This document shows positions 1 through 7,025 of a stretch of DNA of 47,499 nt, in pieces. Numbering within the stretch: the stretch's first letter is position 1; each line of letters starts with the position of its first letter. This DNA is from Nitrospirota bacterium (lineage in GTDB: Bacteria; Nitrospirota; Thermodesulfovibrionia; Thermodesulfovibrionales; UBA6898): NCBI GenBank assembly GCA_021811105.1, contig JAJZPM010000026.1:1-47499 (forward strand), written 5' to 3'. Position numbers and translations under genes: made by a program. A model generated the notes under the pieces. It worked only from the letters and a program-made list of their open reading frames with translations, was not told the DNA's origin and did no database searches.

Positions 1-702
1 TTTGGCCACATGGCCAAAATTGACCCCCCCTATATCCGGGATGCCGGCTTCCTTCTTCCAATTCTTTATCGTCGTCTCTGCGATTTCGCCAGAATATTCC
101 CTGGCCAACCTATTGACCCCTTCCCCTTTCTTTAATCTTGCGACGACTTCGTGCTTGAGTTTTTGTTTTTTTTCCTTGTTTATTTCCTCCAGCCAACGCC
201 TTATCGAACGTTCCCCGGCACATAGCGCCAGGGCAATTCTCTCATCGGTATAGCCAAGGTCATTGAGTTCTCTTGCCGCCGCCATTCTCTCTTTCGTCGT
301 CAGCGGCATCGGTGAATTGGCATTATACGGACACGACAACTCAAGTATCTCTCCGCGGACTTTTCGGTCTTCAAGGTCGGAGACTGTATAGGCAGGTTCC
401 GTATGTACATTCGCCAGCACATCGGAAGCCTTCAATCTTTTGAGGGCCTCGTATCTGTGCAGTCCTTCAAGAATGAGGTATATCGAGCTCCGGGGGTCGC
501 CCGCCTGTATCAGCAGGACTTCTATGGGGGCGACTGTTCTGCCAGCCTCATTTCTGAAGAGGTCAAGGAAGAAGAGGACGCGATCTTCGACAATTTCTTG
601 CCTGGGATTCGTCCCATCGAGGGATCTGACGTTCTTTAACGGGATCCTCTTCGTGAATATCGTTTTTGTTCTTTGTTGTACCGCCATTGCGCCGTCTGTC
701 AT
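1..702 (-). CDS. ParB/sulfiredoxin-fold DNA-binding protein, 3' end outside window
   Basis: Reading frame of 234 codons on the minus strand, open to the left edge, so its C-terminus is missing. The ATG at 702 is preceded by a GGAGGGG ribosome binding site about 4 bases upstream. Residues 15-90 look like a ParB N-terminal domain: a start like IPLKNVRSLDGTNPRQEI, a PIEVLLI strand, then YLILEGLHRYEALKRL, matching the family pattern of a strand followed by (D/E)GxHRxxA. The rest contains two helix-turn-helix-like stretches, one ending in ERSIRRWLEEI (about 155-175) and one around VNRLAREYSGEIAETTIKNW (about 202-222). ParB-like proteins of this sort partition plasmids, act as nucleases or regulate genes on mobile elements. 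The adjacent recombinase supports a mobile-element origin. Family assignment is fairly secure; the exact role is unknown. Confidence 0.72.
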   Translation of the reverse strand, partial: MTDGAMAVQQRTKTIFTKRIPLKNVRSLDGTNPRQEIVEDRVLFFLDLFRNEAGRTVAPIEVLLIQAGDPRSSIYLILEGLHRYEALKRLKASDVLANVHTEPAYTVSDLEDRKVRGEILELSCPYNANSPMPLTTKERMAAARELNDLGYTDERIALALCAGERSIRRWLEEINKEKKQKLKHEVVARLKKGEGVNRLAREYSGEIAETTIKNWKKEAGIPDIGGVNFGHVAK

Positions 703-1624
703 TATTTCCCCTCCCCAAGTAAAGTTCTGACTTCATCAAAGAAATATTACTTTTGGCCTCGTCAGGACTATTTTTTCTTTGTATTTTTTTAGGCCTTAGG
801 AACAGGGGGTGGGAGTGAATCGATAAAGATGCTCTTCGTGAAAAAGTGAATAAAGGGATTAAGGAATTGAGAGAGAAATAACGATGCTTGTGGTTTCCGA
901 GGCAGGTGTTACGTGGAGATTCCCACGGCCCACCCAATTGCTAAGGCCTTCGTCCGATTGCCCCTTTGGTATTTACCCGCATCTTACCCCGTAGAACTCT
1001 GATTTATGGGACGGAAACCGGAACAAATGAGCGCTCTCGTCAGGAACTGAAGGCCTTAAGCCCGGGCGAAACAGCACTTTTGGTGGAGACTGCGCCACGA
1101 TCGACCGGCATGAGAACACTCGATCCTCTGCCGACTGTCCGCATAGATACAGAGTTTCAGTGGGGGTCGAATAAAGGGGGGGCAAACAGGTGGGTGATAT
1201 TCCAGAGTATCTCATCAGACAGCAAGGAATCGAATCGCTGATCATGAGATTCATATACTGTTTACTAATGGTCAGTTTTATCCTTAACATTTTGATTTTA
1301 AATAATAATACACCTCCTTTTTTGACTTTTTCCATCTGATGCACCTCACTCACCCCCGGCGCAAGGAAGGAGAAATAATATTATTTCATAGCATGGAAAG
1401 CGTAGCGACGCTGAAAGGGAGTCGTCTATTGGGCCTCATTAACCCCATTTTTCCGTCAATAGCGGACATCGAGCTATAAAGGGTCACTAGGCCTGACAAG
1501 CCCTTTTAGATCCGCAAGACCTGAGGGCGGTTTCGGAGTCAAGGCATGACATGCACATATTTGCCCACCATGTAAACATGACGACCATAAATACTTGCAG
1601 TCTCTTGTGGAGAAAAAGACAGAC
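703..1624. other. Long accessory stretch without a convincing gene
   Basis: About 0.9 kb between the ParB-like gene and the excisionase-like gene. Open frames at 966-1241 (plus) and 973-1353 (minus) exist, but their translations are low-complexity or cysteine/proline-rich and resemble no family I know. The motif AGGCCTT recurs near 791, 943 and 1050. A 16-base perfect palindrome lies at 1372-1387. The base composition is more mixed and AT-richer than in the core genes to the right. It may hold the regulatory or attachment region of the mobile element. Confidence 0.4.
1372..1387. repeat. Perfect 16-bp AT-rich palindrome
   Basis: GAAATAATATTATTTC reads identically on both strands. It lies about 240 bases upstream of the excisionase-like gene. 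It could be an operator for a dimeric regulator or a recombinase accessory site; nothing in the sequence decides between these. Confidence 0.4.
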
Positions 1625-1939
1625 ATGCAGAAAACGGAAATACTGCCTGACGAAGAGCTTGACTTAACAGGCAATGAAGGCATACCGGTCATCGTTGACG
1701 ACCTTTACCTTATTAGCCGGCTCAATCTATCAAAAGGATTCATCAACCGCCACGCGAAATCGATGGGTTCCTTCTGCCGACCCCGAAAATTTTTTTTAAA
1801 AAATGTCCTTTGCCATCTTGACAAACTGGCAGGCAAATCAATGAATAAGGATAGGACCACTGAGGTCAGGAAGGCGGCGGCAAAACATCAGGTGAATAAT
1901 CTACTCGACATAGTCATAAAACAAAGAAGGAGAAAGTGA
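1625..1939 (+). CDS. Excisionase-like helix-turn-helix protein
   Basis: A 104-residue basic protein. I chose the ATG at 1625, which has GGAG about 12 bases upstream, over the TTG at 1595. The centre (about residues 25-62) runs YLISRLNLSKGFINRHAK and then RPRKFFLKNVLCHLDK. This is the layout of MerR/AlpA-type winged HTH proteins used as excisionases: a recognition helix, an Arg-rich turn, then F(x)K(x)DL-like residues. The stop codon directly abuts the recombinase ATG, so the two genes are translationally coupled. A directionality factor or regulator for the recombinase is the likely role, inferred from the HTH pattern and the coupling. Confidence 0.6.
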   Translation: MQKTEILPDEELDLTGNEGIPVIVDDLYLISRLNLSKGFINRHAKSMGSFCRPRKFFLKNVLCHLDKLAGKSMNKDRTTEVRKAAAKHQVNNLLDIVIKQRRRK

Positions 1940-2965
1940 ATGACTGTCTATAGAAGGGGAGACGGTTGGTACGTAAACATCAAGCTGGGCGGGGTAAGAC
2001 TCAACCGTAAGATAGGCGATACAAAAAAAGAGGCAAAAGAAAGAGAGGCCGAGCTGAGGACCAAGTTTCGCCTCAAGCAGCTTCATCTGGCCGATATACA
2101 AAACTCCGTGCTCTTTCATACCGTTGCCGAAGAATATCTCGATTATGTCAAAAAGACAAAATCGGGGAGGCTGCTAGAACTCGAGGAGACAGACTATAAG
2201 AATCACCTTGAACCCTTTTTCGGGGACTACTTACTGCAGGACATCAACGACAACATTCTTCTGGCGTTCCAGGGAAGGCAAAAATCCATGGGCTATGCAA
2301 ACAGAACATGCAACATTCACATGGGCCTGGTGAGGAAAATCATGAACTTTGCCAAAGCCAAACAATATATAACGCGTGTGGAACTGAAATATCCAATGCT
2401 CAAAGAAAGCAAGAAGCAGCACGCCTTTTTTGCGCCTCAGGAGTACGAACTTCTGAAAAAGAACATCACTTACGACCTCGCTCTCAAGCGTGTGGAGTTT
2501 GCAAAAAACACCGGCCTCCGTCCCGCTGAGCTTACCTATATCGAATGGGATGACGTGAGTTTTGAGTTCAGAACGATAAAGATCCAGGGAAAGGCGGAGT
2601 GGAAACCAAAGACCGACGAGGAGAGGACCGTCCCGCTCAACAAGACGGCGCTCCAGATTTTGAAGGATCTCTATGAGAAGAGAAAAGGCAGGTGGGTATT
2701 CTCCAATAGCGGTAAACCAGTCAAATCCATCAGACATGCCCTGATGACTGCAGCGCGCCGGGCCGGCATTACAAAAAAGGCGACCCCGAATATGCTCAGG
2801 CACACGTTCGCCACCCATGCTCTCGACATGGGGGCCGATCTCATGTCGGTCAAGGAAGTCCTGGGGCAGAAGAATATAACCACCACAGAGAAGTATCTTC
2901 ATAGCATCAAAGAGAGCATGCGTGATGCCGTAAATCGGGTTGAGCGGAAAAAAAAGAAGAAGTGA
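1940..2965 (+). CDS. Tyrosine recombinase / integrase with substituted catalytic histidines
   Basis: A 341-residue site-specific recombinase of the phage-integrase family. An N-terminal AP2-like arm-binding region (about 1-50) is followed by a SAM-like core-binding domain (about 55-150) and the catalytic domain (about 165-330). Visible active-site positions are Arg194 (TGLRPAEL), Lys218 in the beta hairpin (IKIQGKAEW), Arg287 (NMLRHTFATHALDMGADL) and Tyr319 (TTTEKYLHS). The box II histidine is Asn284 and the box III His/Trp is Gln310 (VLGQKN), so both general acid/base histidines are replaced. The ATG has a GGAG ribosome binding site inside the end of the preceding gene. It probably integrates the accessory segment; the nearby tRNA-Pro is the natural candidate target. 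Family call is certain; activity is uncertain because of the substitutions. Confidence 0.93.
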   Translation: MTVYRRGDGWYVNIKLGGVRLNRKIGDTKKEAKEREAELRTKFRLKQLHLADIQNSVLFHTVAEEYLDYVKKTKSGRLLELEETDYKNHLEPFFGDYLLQDINDNILLAFQGRQKSMGYANRTCNIHMGLVRKIMNFAKAKQYITRVELKYPMLKESKKQHAFFAPQEYELLKKNITYDLALKRVEFAKNTGLRPAELTYIEWDDVSFEFRTIKIQGKAEWKPKTDEERTVPLNKTALQILKDLYEKRKGRWVFSNSGKPVKSIRHALMTAARRAGITKKATPNMLRHTFATHALDMGADLMSVKEVLGQKNITTTEKYLHSIKESMRDAVNRVERKKKKK

Positions 2966-3115: not shown

Positions 3116-4597
3116 GTGACGCAGTACGCGATTCTACATGGAGAGAAAACAAGGCCATTCAAAGGCGGCAAAGGGTCCTGTCCCCTATGCGGGGTCCCCG
3201 TTGAGGCGCATTTCGGCGAAATAGAACCAGCGCACTGGCAACATTGTCGTGGGGAGAGAGGATCTTGCGATCCATGGTACGAGCGCCGAACAAAATGGCA
3301 TAAGGATTGGCAAAACAAATTTCCCGAAGCATGGCAAGAAGTCGTCATGACGGATGCAACCGGCGAAAGGCATTATGCCGACGTAAGAACAGATAGGCCC
3401 CTCGTTATTGAATTTCAGAACTCACCGATCAGCTCCTCAACAATTCATATACGAGAAGCTTTTTACGGGGATATGGTGTGGGTCATCAACGCCAGTGGCT
3501 TTAAAGACAATTTTAATCTTGCCAGCGAAGTGACAATGGGACTGAAGAGGATTACCAATGCCCTGCCCACCAAAGAAGGTGACATCAGATCGAAATTTGA
3601 TGCGGAGATCGAGAAACAGGAAACTGAGACTTTTACCACTGAACAGCAAATAAAAGACGCGATAGATGAGACAATACGGCTTCAAAGAAAGATAGACAAT
3701 TACAAGAATTATCTTGATGACTATAGAGGACTCACGGATAAGGCAACAAAGTGGATCACGGATAGCGAAGGCAACTACGCGCCTAACTGCGTCGACTTGT
3801 ATGATTCTTTAAATCGTTCTTATAAAGAACGGTTATTACATATAAGAGATATTATTCGTCAGGACGCTCACTCGATCAATAAAATCGAACAAGACTTCAG
3901 TAAGATAACAAGCCTGAAAAGTGAAATAATAGCCGGCAGAGATTGTAAAAAAGTTCCATACGACAAAATCAATAAGGGTAATTACATGAAAGTCCATGTT
4001 CTATCCCGATCAACCACAGACACATTTTTCAGTGAGCCCGAAAGAATTCATGATGAGATGGGATTATTTCGTTATAAATATCTGACGGACAAGTATGACT
4101 TTTTTCTCGATTATTCCGATGACATTACTAGCCTTCAGCAGGCCATAACGGAGCTTAAGGTTCGAAAACGGACTCTTGACCAGGAACGCGATCAAATAGA
4201 TTCCGAAATGGCAGAGAAGGTCAAACGATGGCTTGTACGTGAACTTGCATCCTCAGAAGAAGCGCTTGCCGGATTAAACATTCAGATCTCGACATTAAGG
4301 GAGAAATCTGGCGCCGACAGGAGGCTGCTTCAGGCGTTACAGAATAGCAAGGGCGAGCGACTTGATACCGCAATAGCAGACTTCAAACGACAGCACGAGG
4401 AAAAAAGACGACAAATCATGAACCGGCATAGGGGCTTTTATCGCCTGATCAAGTGGAAGCACGAGCATAAAGCGTGGAGAGAGGCTTCCCGTCACGTTTA
4501 CTTTGATGGCGGTGAGGGTTATCTATTTCAAAGAACCACTGAAGGTTTGTTTAGAAAAGTCAGCACTGAAGACTTCATGAGAAGTTTGCGTCCATAA
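3116..4597 (+). CDS. CoiA-like nuclease with zinc-finger N-terminus and long coiled coil
   Basis: A 493-residue protein starting at GTG 3116, four codons after an in-frame stop. Later starts would remove the zinc-finger-like region, and no ribosome binding site is visible. Residues 22-44 form CPLCGV...HWQHC, a Cys/His knuckle. Residues 56-117 match the competence protein CoiA family of PD-(D/E)xK nucleases: a Glu-rich helix with H62 and K63, then ADV (Asp89), IEFQNSPISS (Glu99, Gln101) and REAFYGDMVWVI. From about 160 to 450 the sequence is heavily charged and helical, typical of a coiled coil. CoiA aids natural transformation in Firmicutes. The domain also occurs in larger proteins of unknown function in variable regions. 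Here it heads a three-gene cluster beside an integrase, so a DNA-processing or defence role is plausible but unproven. Confidence 0.75.
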   Translation: MTQYAILHGEKTRPFKGGKGSCPLCGVPVEAHFGEIEPAHWQHCRGERGSCDPWYERRTKWHKDWQNKFPEAWQEVVMTDATGERHYADVRTDRPLVIEFQNSPISSSTIHIREAFYGDMVWVINASGFKDNFNLASEVTMGLKRITNALPTKEGDIRSKFDAEIEKQETETFTTEQQIKDAIDETIRLQRKIDNYKNYLDDYRGLTDKATKWITDSEGNYAPNCVDLYDSLNRSYKERLLHIRDIIRQDAHSINKIEQDFSKITSLKSEIIAGRDCKKVPYDKINKGNYMKVHVLSRSTTDTFFSEPERIHDEMGLFRYKYLTDKYDFFLDYSDDITSLQQAITELKVRKRTLDQERDQIDSEMAEKVKRWLVRELASSEEALAGLNIQISTLREKSGADRRLLQALQNSKGERLDTAIADFKRQHEEKRRQIMNRHRGFYRLIKWKHEHKAWREASRHVYFDGGEGYLFQRTTEGLFRKVSTEDFMRSLRP

Positions 4598-4609
4598 GTA
4601 TTATCCCTG

Positions 4610-5326
4610 ATGCAGTGCATTATACCTCATCCATGGATAGAAGAGATTATGCGCGTTAGACGAAGTGATCGATACATCGAGGAACTTTATCCAAATGTCT
4701 GGTTGATGGATAACCATAAATGGGCATTTTACGCCTGGGAAAGTCATAGGGTTCGACCCGGCAATGAAATCCCTTCAGTTCTGGTTCACATGGATTATCA
4801 CTGGGATGGCGTCAATGATTTTCAAGAACCTGCGGCTGTGACCCATCTGATCAATCTTCATTCGTGCGAGAATATAAAAGAATTGGTGGCAGAGGACATT
4901 CTCGTTCGCTATGATTCCTTTATTGCGCCTGCAATTATTCGGGGGTTTATAAGAGAAATACATTTTTTTTGTTTGGATCACGAAAACGATATCGGTCTGG
5001 ATAAAAGTCTGCTGCATGAATATAGGGCTACGCAATTTATTCACACGGATATCGATTCCCTTATTGAACATGTCGCTGGAAGACTTTTAATATTTGATTT
5101 CGACATCGATATTTTTAATCGCTCGGACAGATGGAACGAGGGGAATATTTGGGCAGAAAGGGATATAATCGACTTTGTGGATAAATGTTCGAAGCTGATT
5201 ATGAGGTCATCAGTAGTGACGATTGCCATGTCGTTCGATTATTCCGGAACAGATGACGATACCGCGCACATCGTTAAGCTGGTCGTCCCGAGAATCATCA
5301 AGCATTTCCAAAGAAGATCCTCTTAA
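4610..5326 (+). CDS. UPF0489 family protein with arginase-like metal motifs
   Basis: A 238-residue protein 12 bases after the nuclease gene and probably in its transcript. The pattern NVWLMDNHKWAFYAWE (about 29-44) followed by SVLVHMDYHWDGVND is typical of UPF0489. Residues 60-66 read HxDxHxD, and DFDIDIFN at 163-170 supplies further acidic ligands. This is the arrangement of ureohydrolases (arginase, agmatinase, histone deacetylase-like folds), in which DxHxD and DxD ligands hold two metals. MSFDYSG (207-213) could be a further active-site loop. I infer a metal-dependent hydrolase; the substrate is unknown. The start at 4610 lacks a good ribosome binding site, and an ATG at 4649 is an alternative. 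Confidence 0.7.
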   Translation: MQCIIPHPWIEEIMRVRRSDRYIEELYPNVWLMDNHKWAFYAWESHRVRPGNEIPSVLVHMDYHWDGVNDFQEPAAVTHLINLHSCENIKELVAEDILVRYDSFIAPAIIRGFIREIHFFCLDHENDIGLDKSLLHEYRATQFIHTDIDSLIEHVAGRLLIFDFDIDIFNRSDRWNEGNIWAERDIIDFVDKCSKLIMRSSVVTIAMSFDYSGTDDDTAHIVKLVVPRIIKHFQRRSS

Positions 5327-5378
5327 TGATCAGCAAAGGCTGTGATATTGCGAGAACAGGAGAATTTGACGAGTAACT

Positions 5379-6005
5379 ATGCTTCCGAAAATTTCGATTA
5401 AAGTCGATGTTTCGACAGAAATATTTCTAGACCGTCTTGAGCAGATTGCCAAGAACCTGGGAAATGCTGAAGTGAAAAGAACTCGGGATATTGCAGGATT
5501 TGAAGGATGGCAAGGTTTGAATCTGGACTCGCGCCTGCCAAGTTCTCACGAAAACTTATGCGGTATAGTCTTCTCGCAGCCGGAAAGCGCAGATATGGCA
5601 TTCATAGAGTTAAGCGCTGTGAAATGGCACCCCGACCCTCCGCCATATGATACGTATGTTGAGGCGGCCAGAATTCTTTTTGATCCCCTGATTAAGGGAT
5701 ACAACAAGAAATACAACTCCCGCTATCGGTTAAGTGTCCAGGCAAAAACAGTCAAAAAGTTTGCACTGCCGCCGGAAACGGCAAAACGTCTGCAATCGTT
5801 TATCGCCTGTGCGAATAAAAGAGCCTTGCATCCGAACGACTGGAACCGATTCTATCAATTTATAGCTTTTTGTCATGCACACCATGTGAAATTGACCGGA
5901 AGCCACTTGAGTCGTCTTCTGTTCGAAGGGGGATTCAGCAAGGAAAAAGCCGAATACTTGGCCGATATCTATTGCCACGGCAAGGAAATCCTGGCATTGA
6001 AATGA
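5379..6005 (+). CDS. Hypothetical protein, third gene of the nuclease cluster
   Basis: A 208-residue soluble protein that I do not recognise. It has no signal peptide, membrane segment or obvious catalytic motif. The N-terminal half is mixed alpha/beta (SIKVDVSTEIFLDRLEQIAK). A central stretch contains WHPDPPPYDTYVEAARILFD. The C-terminal part (about 130-205) is helical, with FIACANKRALHPNDWNRFYQ and a helix-turn-helix-like SGSH/LSRLLFEGGFSKEKAEYLAD region. It lies 52 bases after the UPF0489 gene on the same strand and is probably cotranscribed. It is the last gene before the tRNA-Pro, so it marks the right end of the accessory block. Confidence 0.6.
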   Translation: MLPKISIKVDVSTEIFLDRLEQIAKNLGNAEVKRTRDIAGFEGWQGLNLDSRLPSSHENLCGIVFSQPESADMAFIELSAVKWHPDPPPYDTYVEAARILFDPLIKGYNKKYNSRYRLSVQAKTVKKFALPPETAKRLQSFIACANKRALHPNDWNRFYQFIAFCHAHHVKLTGSHLSRLLFEGGFSKEKAEYLADIYCHGKEILALK

Positions 6006-6236
6006 TAAAAGGTCCTTCGGAATCCTTGTCATGGGAGTCCCTGGTATATTTCTAAGGCTGGGTTTACGGAAGAGACGAAAGCCTTGGCCACAAAAAAAGA
6101 GATTCTATTTTCGAGTGCAAATAAATTTTATGTCCTCGTCAGCCAGGTATAAAAGTGATGAAAAAAGAGCACGAAAAAGAGGGAGAAATAATTGTCTCGA
6201 AAAAAAGTTGCGACATTCTTGCGACATGAAAAAAAA
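6006..6236. other. Junction between accessory genes and tRNA-Pro
   Basis: AT-rich, purine-biased plus strand with no convincing gene. It holds a tandem duplication of TTGCGACAT at 6208-6216 and 6219-6227 (11-base period), 48 bases outside the tRNA 3' end. Such short direct repeats near an integration target are often recombinase arm sites, but that is inference. Confidence 0.35.
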
Positions 6237-6268
6237 ACAAGGACCTACAAAACCTTGTAAGTCCTTGT
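6237..6268. terminator. Bidirectional intrinsic terminator after tRNA-Pro
   Basis: A 14-base-pair stem, arms ACAAGGACCTACAA and TTGTAAGTCCTTGT with one G-U pair and a four-base loop. It is flanked by an A-run on the left (U-run for the minus strand) and a T-run on the right. It ends the leftward ihfA-merR-tRNA unit and can also stop rightward transcription from the accessory genes. Confidence 0.85.
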
Positions 6269-6274
6269 TTTTAA

Positions 6275-6351
6275 TGGTCGGGGCGACCTGATTTGAACAG
6301 GCGACCACTCGCACCCCAAGCGAGTGCGCTACCAAGCTGCGCTACGCCCCG
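6275..6351 (-). tRNA. tRNA-Pro (anticodon TGG)
   Basis: A 77-base cloverleaf. The acceptor stem is CGGGGCG paired with CGCCCCG, followed by A and an encoded CCA. The D arm has AGCTTGGTA, the anticodon arm CTCGC-TTGGGGT-GCGAG carries the TGG anticodon, and the T arm contains TTCAAAT. The 5' end lies one base after the TAA of the MerR gene, so the tRNA is processed from the ihfA-merR transcript. Its 3' end points at the integrase-containing accessory block, the usual orientation for a tRNA used as an integration site. Confidence 0.97.
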
Positions 6352-6748: not shown

Positions 6749-7025
6749 TCAGTTTTTCGATCTCTTCTTTCAGTTGGTTGCTCACTCTGAAGGTTATCAC
6801 TCTTCTCGGGGTAATTTCAAGGTCTTCGCCGGTCTTGGGATTTCTTCCACGACGGGCCATCTTTTTTCTTACGTTAAATGTCCCGAAGCCCGAAATCTTA
6901 ATCGACTCACCTTCCGCAAAGGTCTGCTTCATCGTGTCAAAAAGGATCTCGACAATATCCTGGGCCTCCTTCTTCGACAGTCCTACCTTCTCAAAAATTG
7001 CATCAACAAGATCGGCTTTTGTCAT
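6741..7025 (-). CDS. ihfA: Integration host factor alpha-like / HU-family protein
   Basis: A 94-residue DNA-bending protein of the HU/IHF family. MTKADLVDAIFEKVGLSKKE forms the helical dimerisation part. ISGFGTFNVRKKMARRGRNP and the KTGEDLEITPRRVITFRV arm form the DNA-binding beta ribbon with the intercalating Pro. Sequence features (RNPKTGE, RRVITFR) favour IHF-alpha over HU. IHF bends DNA to let NtrC-type activators touch sigma54 polymerase, which fits the sigma54 system at 24-26 kb, and it assists integrases. It is the first gene of the ihfA-merR-tRNA-Pro unit, and a near-consensus promoter lies upstream. Confidence 0.92.
   Translation of the reverse strand: MTKADLVDAIFEKVGLSKKEAQDIVEILFDTMKQTFAEGESIKISGFGTFNVRKKMARRGRNPKTGEDLEITPRRVITFRVSNQLKEEIEKLNA

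What the first reader, a model, noticed from the sequence alone, without database searches (positions are those of the whole stretch)
3116..6005. CoiA-like nuclease, UPF0489 protein and unknown protein beside an integrase and tRNA-Pro
The three co-directional genes are the cargo between the recombinase and the tRNA. One has nuclease signature residues, one has arginase-like metal residues (HxDxHxD, DFDID), one is unknown. Such combinations on integrating elements are typical of defence cargo, though none of these families is an established defence system in this order.
Basis: partly seen in the sequence, partly recalled or inferred. Interest (0 to 1): 0.6.

Follow-up and report, generated by a model that had tools for sequence, protein, structure and literature searches.

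The report
Nuclease-containing cargo on giant conjugative element
Three neighbouring genes (a CoiA-like DNA-cutting enzyme with an unusual coiled-coil insert, an arginase-like metalloenzyme and a protein of a new rare family) sit at one end of what appears to be a ~217-kb self-transmissible DNA element that also carries known anti-phage (BREX) genes, but the three were not found together anywhere else, so they look like assorted mobile cargo and not a conserved defence system.

Summary
In detail: three co-directional ORFs lie between a tyrosine integrase and tRNA-Pro. Gene 1 is a CoiA-family PD-EXQ nuclease in two conserved parts, separated by a ~290-aa coiled-coil-like insert not seen in 58 relatives. 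Gene 2 is a short UPF0489 (peptide-arginase-like) protein with all six metal ligands but Asn in place of a guanidinium-contacting Glu. Gene 3 belongs to a rare unnamed family. The contig ends at position 1, where a ParB-like gene continues in frame on contig C34 across a 19-bp overlap. C34 carries exact copies of the tRNA-Pro 3' end at 211 and 248 kb, F-type conjugation genes and BREX-type genes. The three genes are thus the integrase-proximal tip of a probable ~217-kb ICE, not its whole cargo. A defence or inter-element role for gene 1 remains plausible (a CoiA domain occurs among validated E. coli defence systems). Joint function is undemonstrated. Verdict: new variant of a known kind.

The parts
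1..702 (-). ParB-like DNA-binding gene, cut by the contig end; continues in frame as C34:2-811 (about 498 aa in all)
   Evidence: weak HTH_23 hit, ParB likeness by eye; 19-bp exact overlap of contig ends and in-frame continuation
1595..1939 (+). 114-aa ORF directly before the integrase; possible excisionase/HTH protein (inference)
   Evidence: no family match; position and HTH-like segment only
1940..2965 (+). tyrosine integrase of the element
   Evidence: PF00589 E=1.8e-31; phrog_1 integrase E=2.8e-54
3116..4597 (+). gene 1: CoiA-like PD-EXQ nuclease with zinc-ribbon-like N-terminus, ~290-aa coiled-coil-like insert (about residues 145-430) and conserved CoiA-type C-terminal segment (about 434-480)
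4610..5326 (+). gene 2: short UPF0489 (peptide-arginase-like) metalloenzyme; ligands H36, D62, H64, D66, D165, D167; N35 where OspR has Glu11
   Evidence: short relatives; ligand assignment from PMC10028609
5379..6005 (+). gene 3: unnamed family; predicted alpha/beta N-terminal domain plus helical C-terminal domain with LHPxDWxRFYxF motif
6233..6272 (.). hairpin with A-run and T-run; terminator for tRNA-Pro (-) and possibly for the three-gene run (+)
   Evidence: also present next to a tRNA-Pro fragment in a congener
6269..6323 (-). attachment-site segment: 3' end of tRNA-Pro, repeated exactly at C34:211143-211192 (50 bp) and C34:247947-248001 (55 bp)
6275..6351 (-). tRNA-Pro(GGG), integration target

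Best explanation
The three genes are foreign accessory cargo at the integrase/tRNA-proximal tip of a ~217-kb integrative and conjugative element (ICE) inserted at tRNA-Pro(GGG). Shown by sequence: integrase, repeated tRNA 3' ends in matching orientation, F-type conjugation genes, BREX-type genes, absence of the conjugation gene tested (traU) from near relatives. Inferred: gene 1 is the active part. Its zinc-ribbon and PD-EXQ domain cut incoming DNA of phages or rival elements, and its coiled-coil insert drives oligomerisation or partner/target sensing. Gene 2 is a binuclear-metal hydrolase of the ureohydrolase kind acting on a protein, peptide or small molecule, and gene 3 a small binding or adaptor protein. 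Probably each gene was gained separately and can act alone, even if they share a transcript. P(gene 1 is an active DNase) about 0.75; P(it serves anti-phage or anti-element defence) about 0.5; P(all three act as one system) about 0.2.
For: CoiA assignment through relatives that hit PF25164/PF06054 and through invariant Cys/His and D89...E99xQ101 residues; PD-EXQ prediction for CoiA (PMC1189080). Two-part architecture: the C-terminal segment alone matches CoiA relatives (best E=1.2e-6), the insert alone matches none. CoiA relatives lie on plasmids, in an integron-like gene array and in viral contigs, some beside defence or toxin genes: multiubiquitin/ThiF operon, TrlF ATPase, abortive-infection protein, RES/Xre pair, HipA. 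ICE: tRNA 3' repeats, contig junction, TraU, TraN, TraC, TraH, TraG, TrbI and a coupling protein, BrxC, PglX, PglZ and BrxH, TraU in none of 25 relatives, sequence differing beyond the tRNA 3' end in two congeners. Composition shift. Short UPF0489 relatives are also on mobile DNA, one next to a CAP12/Pycsar-type TIR effector gene.
Against: No activity is demonstrated. CoiA relatives also sit in conjugation loci, so a DNA-transfer role for the element is possible. PADLOC models do not recognise gene 1 or five relatives tested, apart from one weak hit of gene 1 to a MukB-like protein in its coiled-coil region. No strong promoter was found before gene 1. The contig join is inferred from a 19-bp palindromic overlap plus an in-frame ORF. 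No relaxase was identified; the search for one was not systematic.
Confidence: 0.5

Rival explanations
1. A true three-gene defence system: the nuclease is the effector, gene 3 a sensor or adaptor, gene 2 a modifying enzyme that activates or protects.
For: Tight co-directional run (12 and 52 bp gaps), similar low GC (42-46%), hairpin after gene 3. Gene-3 homologues lie near a TIR gene and a DUF3368-domain gene; a short UPF0489 relative lies next to a CAP12/Pycsar-type TIR effector.
Against: No second occurrence of any pair: 59 CoiA loci, 11 UPF0489 loci and 5 gene-3 loci lack the partners. No near relative sampled has gene 1 (295 genomes, 229 genomes).
Confidence: 0.2
2. Element housekeeping: gene 1 processes or restricts DNA during conjugative transfer, replication or exclusion of rival elements; genes 2 and 3 are unrelated passengers.
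For: CoiA relatives lie next to T4SS, relaxase and coupling genes on conjugative plasmids and in viral contigs; gene 1 is integrase-adjacent, and a Cupriavidus plasmid also has CoiA next to a site-specific integrase.
Against: Contexts are very diverse, including an integron-like gene array with no transfer function near.
Confidence: 0.25
3. A RiPP-like modification locus: gene 2 is a peptide arginase making ornithine in a peptide encoded nearby.
For: UPF0489 proteins include the peptide arginases OspR, FlmR, OhkR and BipC (PMC10028609, PMC12703449, PMC12707348); all six metal ligands kept.
Against: No RiPP-type maturase gene beside it; the Glu that contacts the guanidinium in OspR is Asn here.
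Confidence: 0.05

Closest known systems
CoiA family (PF25164 CoiA_N / PF06054 CoiA_nuc; S. pneumoniae CoiA; 'competence protein CoiA family' genes of plasmids and phages)
   Same: Cys/His N-terminus, PD-EXQ residues D89, E99, Q101, and the C-terminal KxW..A..PVYFDxG segment shared with mobile CoiA proteins
   Different: ~290-aa coiled-coil-like insert between the two conserved parts; not recognised by the Pfam models directly; not in a competence locus
CoiA-domain defence system of the E. coli selection in PMC9519451
   Same: a CoiA domain is listed among its validated anti-phage systems
   Different: homology to that particular protein was not tested here; no defence phenotype is known for gene 1
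Peptide arginases OspR/FlmR/OhkR/BipC (UPF0489, PF12640)
   Same: DxHxD, DxD and N-terminal His ligand; the profile of gene 2 with four relatives matches OspR structure 8BRP (E=2e-41)
   Different: short (238 aa), DNHKWAFYAW in place of EEH(N/H)EAF, no RiPP context; nearer by motif to short UPF0489 genes of viral contigs with AimR-like genes (DHNFAFAAWE)
F-type (MPF_F) integrative and conjugative elements
   Same: integrase at a tRNA, direct repeats of the tRNA 3' end, TraU/N/C/H/G, TrbI, coupling protein
   Different: very large (~217 kb to the first repeat), with its own RNA polymerase beta'-like subunit, sliding clamp, primase and ribonucleotide reductase
BREX
   Same: BrxC/PglY, PglX, BrxH and PglZ homologues on the same element (C34 151-165 kb)
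   Different: about 150 kb from the three genes; subtype and completeness not settled

Membership tests
CoiA family (gene 1) | direct match to PF25164 or PF06054 above the curated cut-off | tested here: not met
   no hit at E<=1; relatives of gene 1 hit the models, only some above cut-off, so kinship is by transitive homology (phmmer E to 5e-38)
CoiA family (gene 1) | PD-EXQ active-site residues | tested here: met
   D89, E99, Q101 invariant in 7 aligned proteins
CoiA family (gene 1) | nuclease activity | not testable with these tools
   needs purified protein
UPF0489 (gene 2) | PF12640 match above cut-off | tested here: met
   32.2 bits against 27
UPF0489 (gene 2) | six metal-binding Asp/His residues | tested here: met
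   H36, D62, H64, D66; D165, D167 in DFDID (sequence)
Peptide arginase FlmR/OhkR type (gene 2) | NCBIfam cut-off, and Glu before the metal His | tested here: not met
   26.8 bits against 350; Asn35 in place of Glu
Known anti-phage defence system | match to a defence model | tested here: not met
   no PADLOC match for genes 2 and 3; gene 1 only a weak MukB-like coiled-coil hit
Known anti-phage defence system | phage resistance on expression | not testable with these tools
   bench test
ICE (F-type) | integrase plus direct repeats bounding the element | tested here: met
   depends on the inferred C9-C34 join
ICE (F-type) | mating-pair formation genes and coupling protein | tested here: met
ICE (F-type) | relaxase | tested here: inconclusive
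   none recognised among the ORFs scanned; search not exhaustive
ICE (F-type) | excision and transfer | not testable with these tools
   needs cells, or reads across the empty site

The most novel reading that the evidence does not exclude
The three genes form a new defence module in which a coiled-coil CoiA nuclease is gated by a UPF0489 enzyme that changes arginines on a protein (gene 1, gene 3 or a phage protein), with gene 3 as sensor: immunity controlled by arginine-to-ornithine conversion.
Probability: 0.05. Interest if true: 0.85.

Novelty: new variant of a known kind. Interest (0 to 1): 0.42.

Why it matters
It turns a short unexplained cluster into the marked end of a very large conjugative element with BREX-type genes, in a lineage whose sampled near relatives lack it. 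It also defines three testable items: a CoiA nuclease subtype with a coiled-coil insert, a short mobile UPF0489 subfamily with an altered active site that is shared with viral contigs, and a new small protein family. It also warns that cargo beside an integrase is not by itself evidence for a multi-gene defence system.

Tried and rejected
(1) Conserved three-gene system: rejected because no pair co-occurs elsewhere. (2) Single-sequence scans of viral and genome contigs found no relatives; alignment queries worked, except for gene 3 in viral contigs. Genes 1 and 3 gave no match in the phage records. (3) The G213 match to gene 3 is an AbiEii-type nucleotidyltransferase by Pfam, 19.7 bits, and is not counted as a homologue. 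(4) Gene-3 fold: the N-terminal domain resembles KA1/helix-grip domains (best Z 9.2, 90 residues, 2.7 A) and, lower, BamC and an RnlA domain (Z 7.4); the C-terminal domain best matches Salmonella Q8ZRJ2 (Z 7.5, 76 residues, 2.5 A), with no sequence support. These are near the range of common arrangements and give no function. (5) Solved-structure sequence searches: nothing useful for gene 1, gene 3 or the CoiA profile; the UPF0489 profile hit OspR. (6) The idea that C34 is plain chromosome because it holds rpoC: the genome has a separate rpoC on C41. (7) A zinc-ribbon-looking gene near UPF0489 in L126 was checked as a possible CoiA and is not one by Pfam or the CoiA profile. (8) The Jet (MukB-like) hit of gene 1 is put down to coiled-coil composition.

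Full report
Observation. Upstream is a tyrosine integrase, 1940-2965 (PF00589, E=1.8e-31), downstream tRNA-Pro(GGG), 6275-6351 on the - strand. The GTG start of gene 1 agrees with where homologues begin. The genes have 42-46% GC and GC3 of 0.44-0.49, against 54% GC beyond position 7000 and GC3 0.66-0.69 in two core genes. A hairpin at 6233-6272 can end the tRNA transcript and possibly the three-gene run.

Gene 1. Pfam does not recognise it directly. Its first ~160 residues match proteins of 42 plasmids, mostly annotated 'competence protein CoiA family'. Six of these, scanned in turn, hit CoiA_N and in two cases CoiA_nuc. The alignment keeps C22, C25, H40, H43 and C51 and the D89...E99-x-Q101 set, which is the PD-EXQ site predicted for CoiA (PMC1189080). 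A scan of viral contigs gave 46 more loci. In a set of 58 CoiA-like ORFs over 150 aa, residues 425-493 of gene 1 alone match many (best E=1.2e-6), around a KxW..A..PVYFDxG motif, whereas residues 146-424 match none significantly. So gene 1 is a CoiA protein in two conserved parts with a long, charged, heptad-like insert between them. The coiled-coil nature of the insert is a reading of the sequence, supported only by weak hits to coiled-coil proteins.

Gene 2. It passes the UPF0489 cut-off and weakly matches the peptide-arginase model. UPF0489 is the family of the peptide arginases OspR, FlmR, OhkR and BipC (PMC12703449, PMC12707348). In OspR the ligands are His12, Asp39, His41, Asp43, Asp165 and Asp167, with Glu11 near the guanidinium (PMC10028609). 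The alignment gives H36, D62, H64, D66 in gene 2, and the sequence has D165 and D167 in DFDID. The residue at Glu11 is Asn35. A profile of gene 2 and four relatives matches OspR structure 8BRP at E=2e-41. In its class UPF0489 occurs in 8 of 230 genomes, in other contexts: one locus with PqqD-like, sulfotransferase and radical-SAM-looking genes, others as lipoprotein-like proteins with repeat-like ends (by eye). The best look-alikes by motif are 219-255-aa proteins from four viral contigs, with DHNFAFAAWE or DHNWAFAAWE and DFDIDIF or DLDLDFF-type motifs. In L126 the gene about 0.4 kb downstream is AimR (E=1e-101), and in L127 the gene just upstream is a CAP12/Pycsar-type TIR effector (E=3e-33). 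So the short UPF0489 genes are mobile accessory genes too.

Gene 3. No family in four libraries. Homologues at 31-36% identity: a Shinella plasmid, Billgrantia, Nodosilinea, a Rhizobiales contig whose gene is nearly the same as the Shinella one, and a Verrucomicrobia MAG fragment. Of 395 sampled genomes of the phylum only one besides its own rang, and that hit is an AbiEii-type protein, discounted. An AlphaFold2 model (pLDDT 87, pTM 0.55) shows an alpha/beta N-terminal domain and a helical C-terminal domain; structural matches are middling and not informative about function.

Do they belong together? In none of the gene-3 loci is a CoiA or UPF0489 gene found. In none of 13 plasmid and 46 viral CoiA loci is gene 2 or gene 3 found, and in none of 11 UPF0489 loci the other two. 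Flanks differ (about 0.2 to 8 kb a side), and the collections are samples, so this is strong but not final. Gene 1 was absent from 295 sampled genomes of its phylum and, by profile, from 229 of its class, its own excepted.

The element. The exact 3' end of tRNA-Pro recurs in the same genome at C34:211143-211192 and C34:247947-248001. The starts of the window contig and of C34 share 19 bp of a palindrome, and the ParB-like ORF that runs off the window at position 1 continues in frame in C34. With this join the tRNA repeats have the orientation expected of an element inserted at the tRNA 3' end: tRNA-Pro, window 6272 down to 1, then C34 1 to 211143, about 217 kb, then a further 36.8 kb to the second repeat. 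C34 carries TraU, TraN, TrbI, TraC, TraH, TraG and a coupling protein and BrxC, a NucC-like nuclease, PglX, BrxH and PglZ at 151-165 kb. TraU is in none of 25 relatives searched besides its own genome. In congeners the sequence matches the window up to the tRNA 3' end (G157, from 6274) or the hairpin (G160, from 6228) and then differs. Together this is best read as an F-type ICE. Marked as inferred: the physical join, excision, transfer and the relaxase.

Mechanism. Shown: conserved catalytic residues and domain order. Inferred: gene 1 cuts DNA of invaders or rivals. The support is that a CoiA domain is listed among validated defence systems in an E. coli selection (PMC9519451) and that some CoiA relatives sit beside defence or toxin genes. 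Others sit in conjugation regions, which supports the rival reading of an element-housekeeping nuclease. Genes 2 and 3 are given a metal-dependent hydrolase role and a binding role by family and fold only.

Verdict. Observation confirmed; interpretation partly supported. The 'three-gene set' fails its own refutation test. Gene 1 is a new variant of the mobile CoiA kind. The larger and better supported result is the ~217-kb element.

Noticed in passing
G000:C34:80653-84696 (-), locus L058: A second complete RNA polymerase beta'-like subunit (1347 aa, Rpb1 domains 1-5, NADFDGD motif kept, 44% identical to the core copy on C41 over the part compared) lies on the element. No beta-like partner was found with the one motif searched. 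Unusual for a conjugative element.
   Followed up: partly
G000:C34:151663-171809, loci L061-L062: BREX-type module: BrxC/PglY, NucC-like PD-DExK nuclease, PglX, BrxH, PglZ, a second methyltransferase and a helicase.
   Followed up: partly
G000:C34:85589-140632: The element also encodes ParB, class II ribonucleotide reductase, DNA polymerase sliding clamp and DnaG primase.
   Followed up: partly
G158:C46, locus L040 6557-6902 and 12497-12778; G000:C34 211 kb and 248 kb: tRNA-Pro 3' fragments preceded by 160-280 bp of shared sequence in two species: likely ends of a family of elements using the same tRNA.
   Followed up: partly
window 1-30 / C34 1-30: A palindrome of about 40 bp (GGGGGGTCAATTTTGGCCATGTGGCCAAAATTGACCCCCC after joining) inside the ParB-like gene lies exactly at the contig break and probably caused it.
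   Followed up: partly
L125, L126, L127: Short UPF0489 genes lie about 0.4-0.5 kb upstream of AimR genes (Pfam-confirmed in L126) in viral contigs; in L127 the preceding gene is a CAP12/Pycsar-type TIR effector.
   Followed up: partly
L007 6918-7892: The gene next to the gene-3 homologue in Billgrantia has a GIY-YIG-looking stretch by eye, but no Pfam match.
   Followed up: partly
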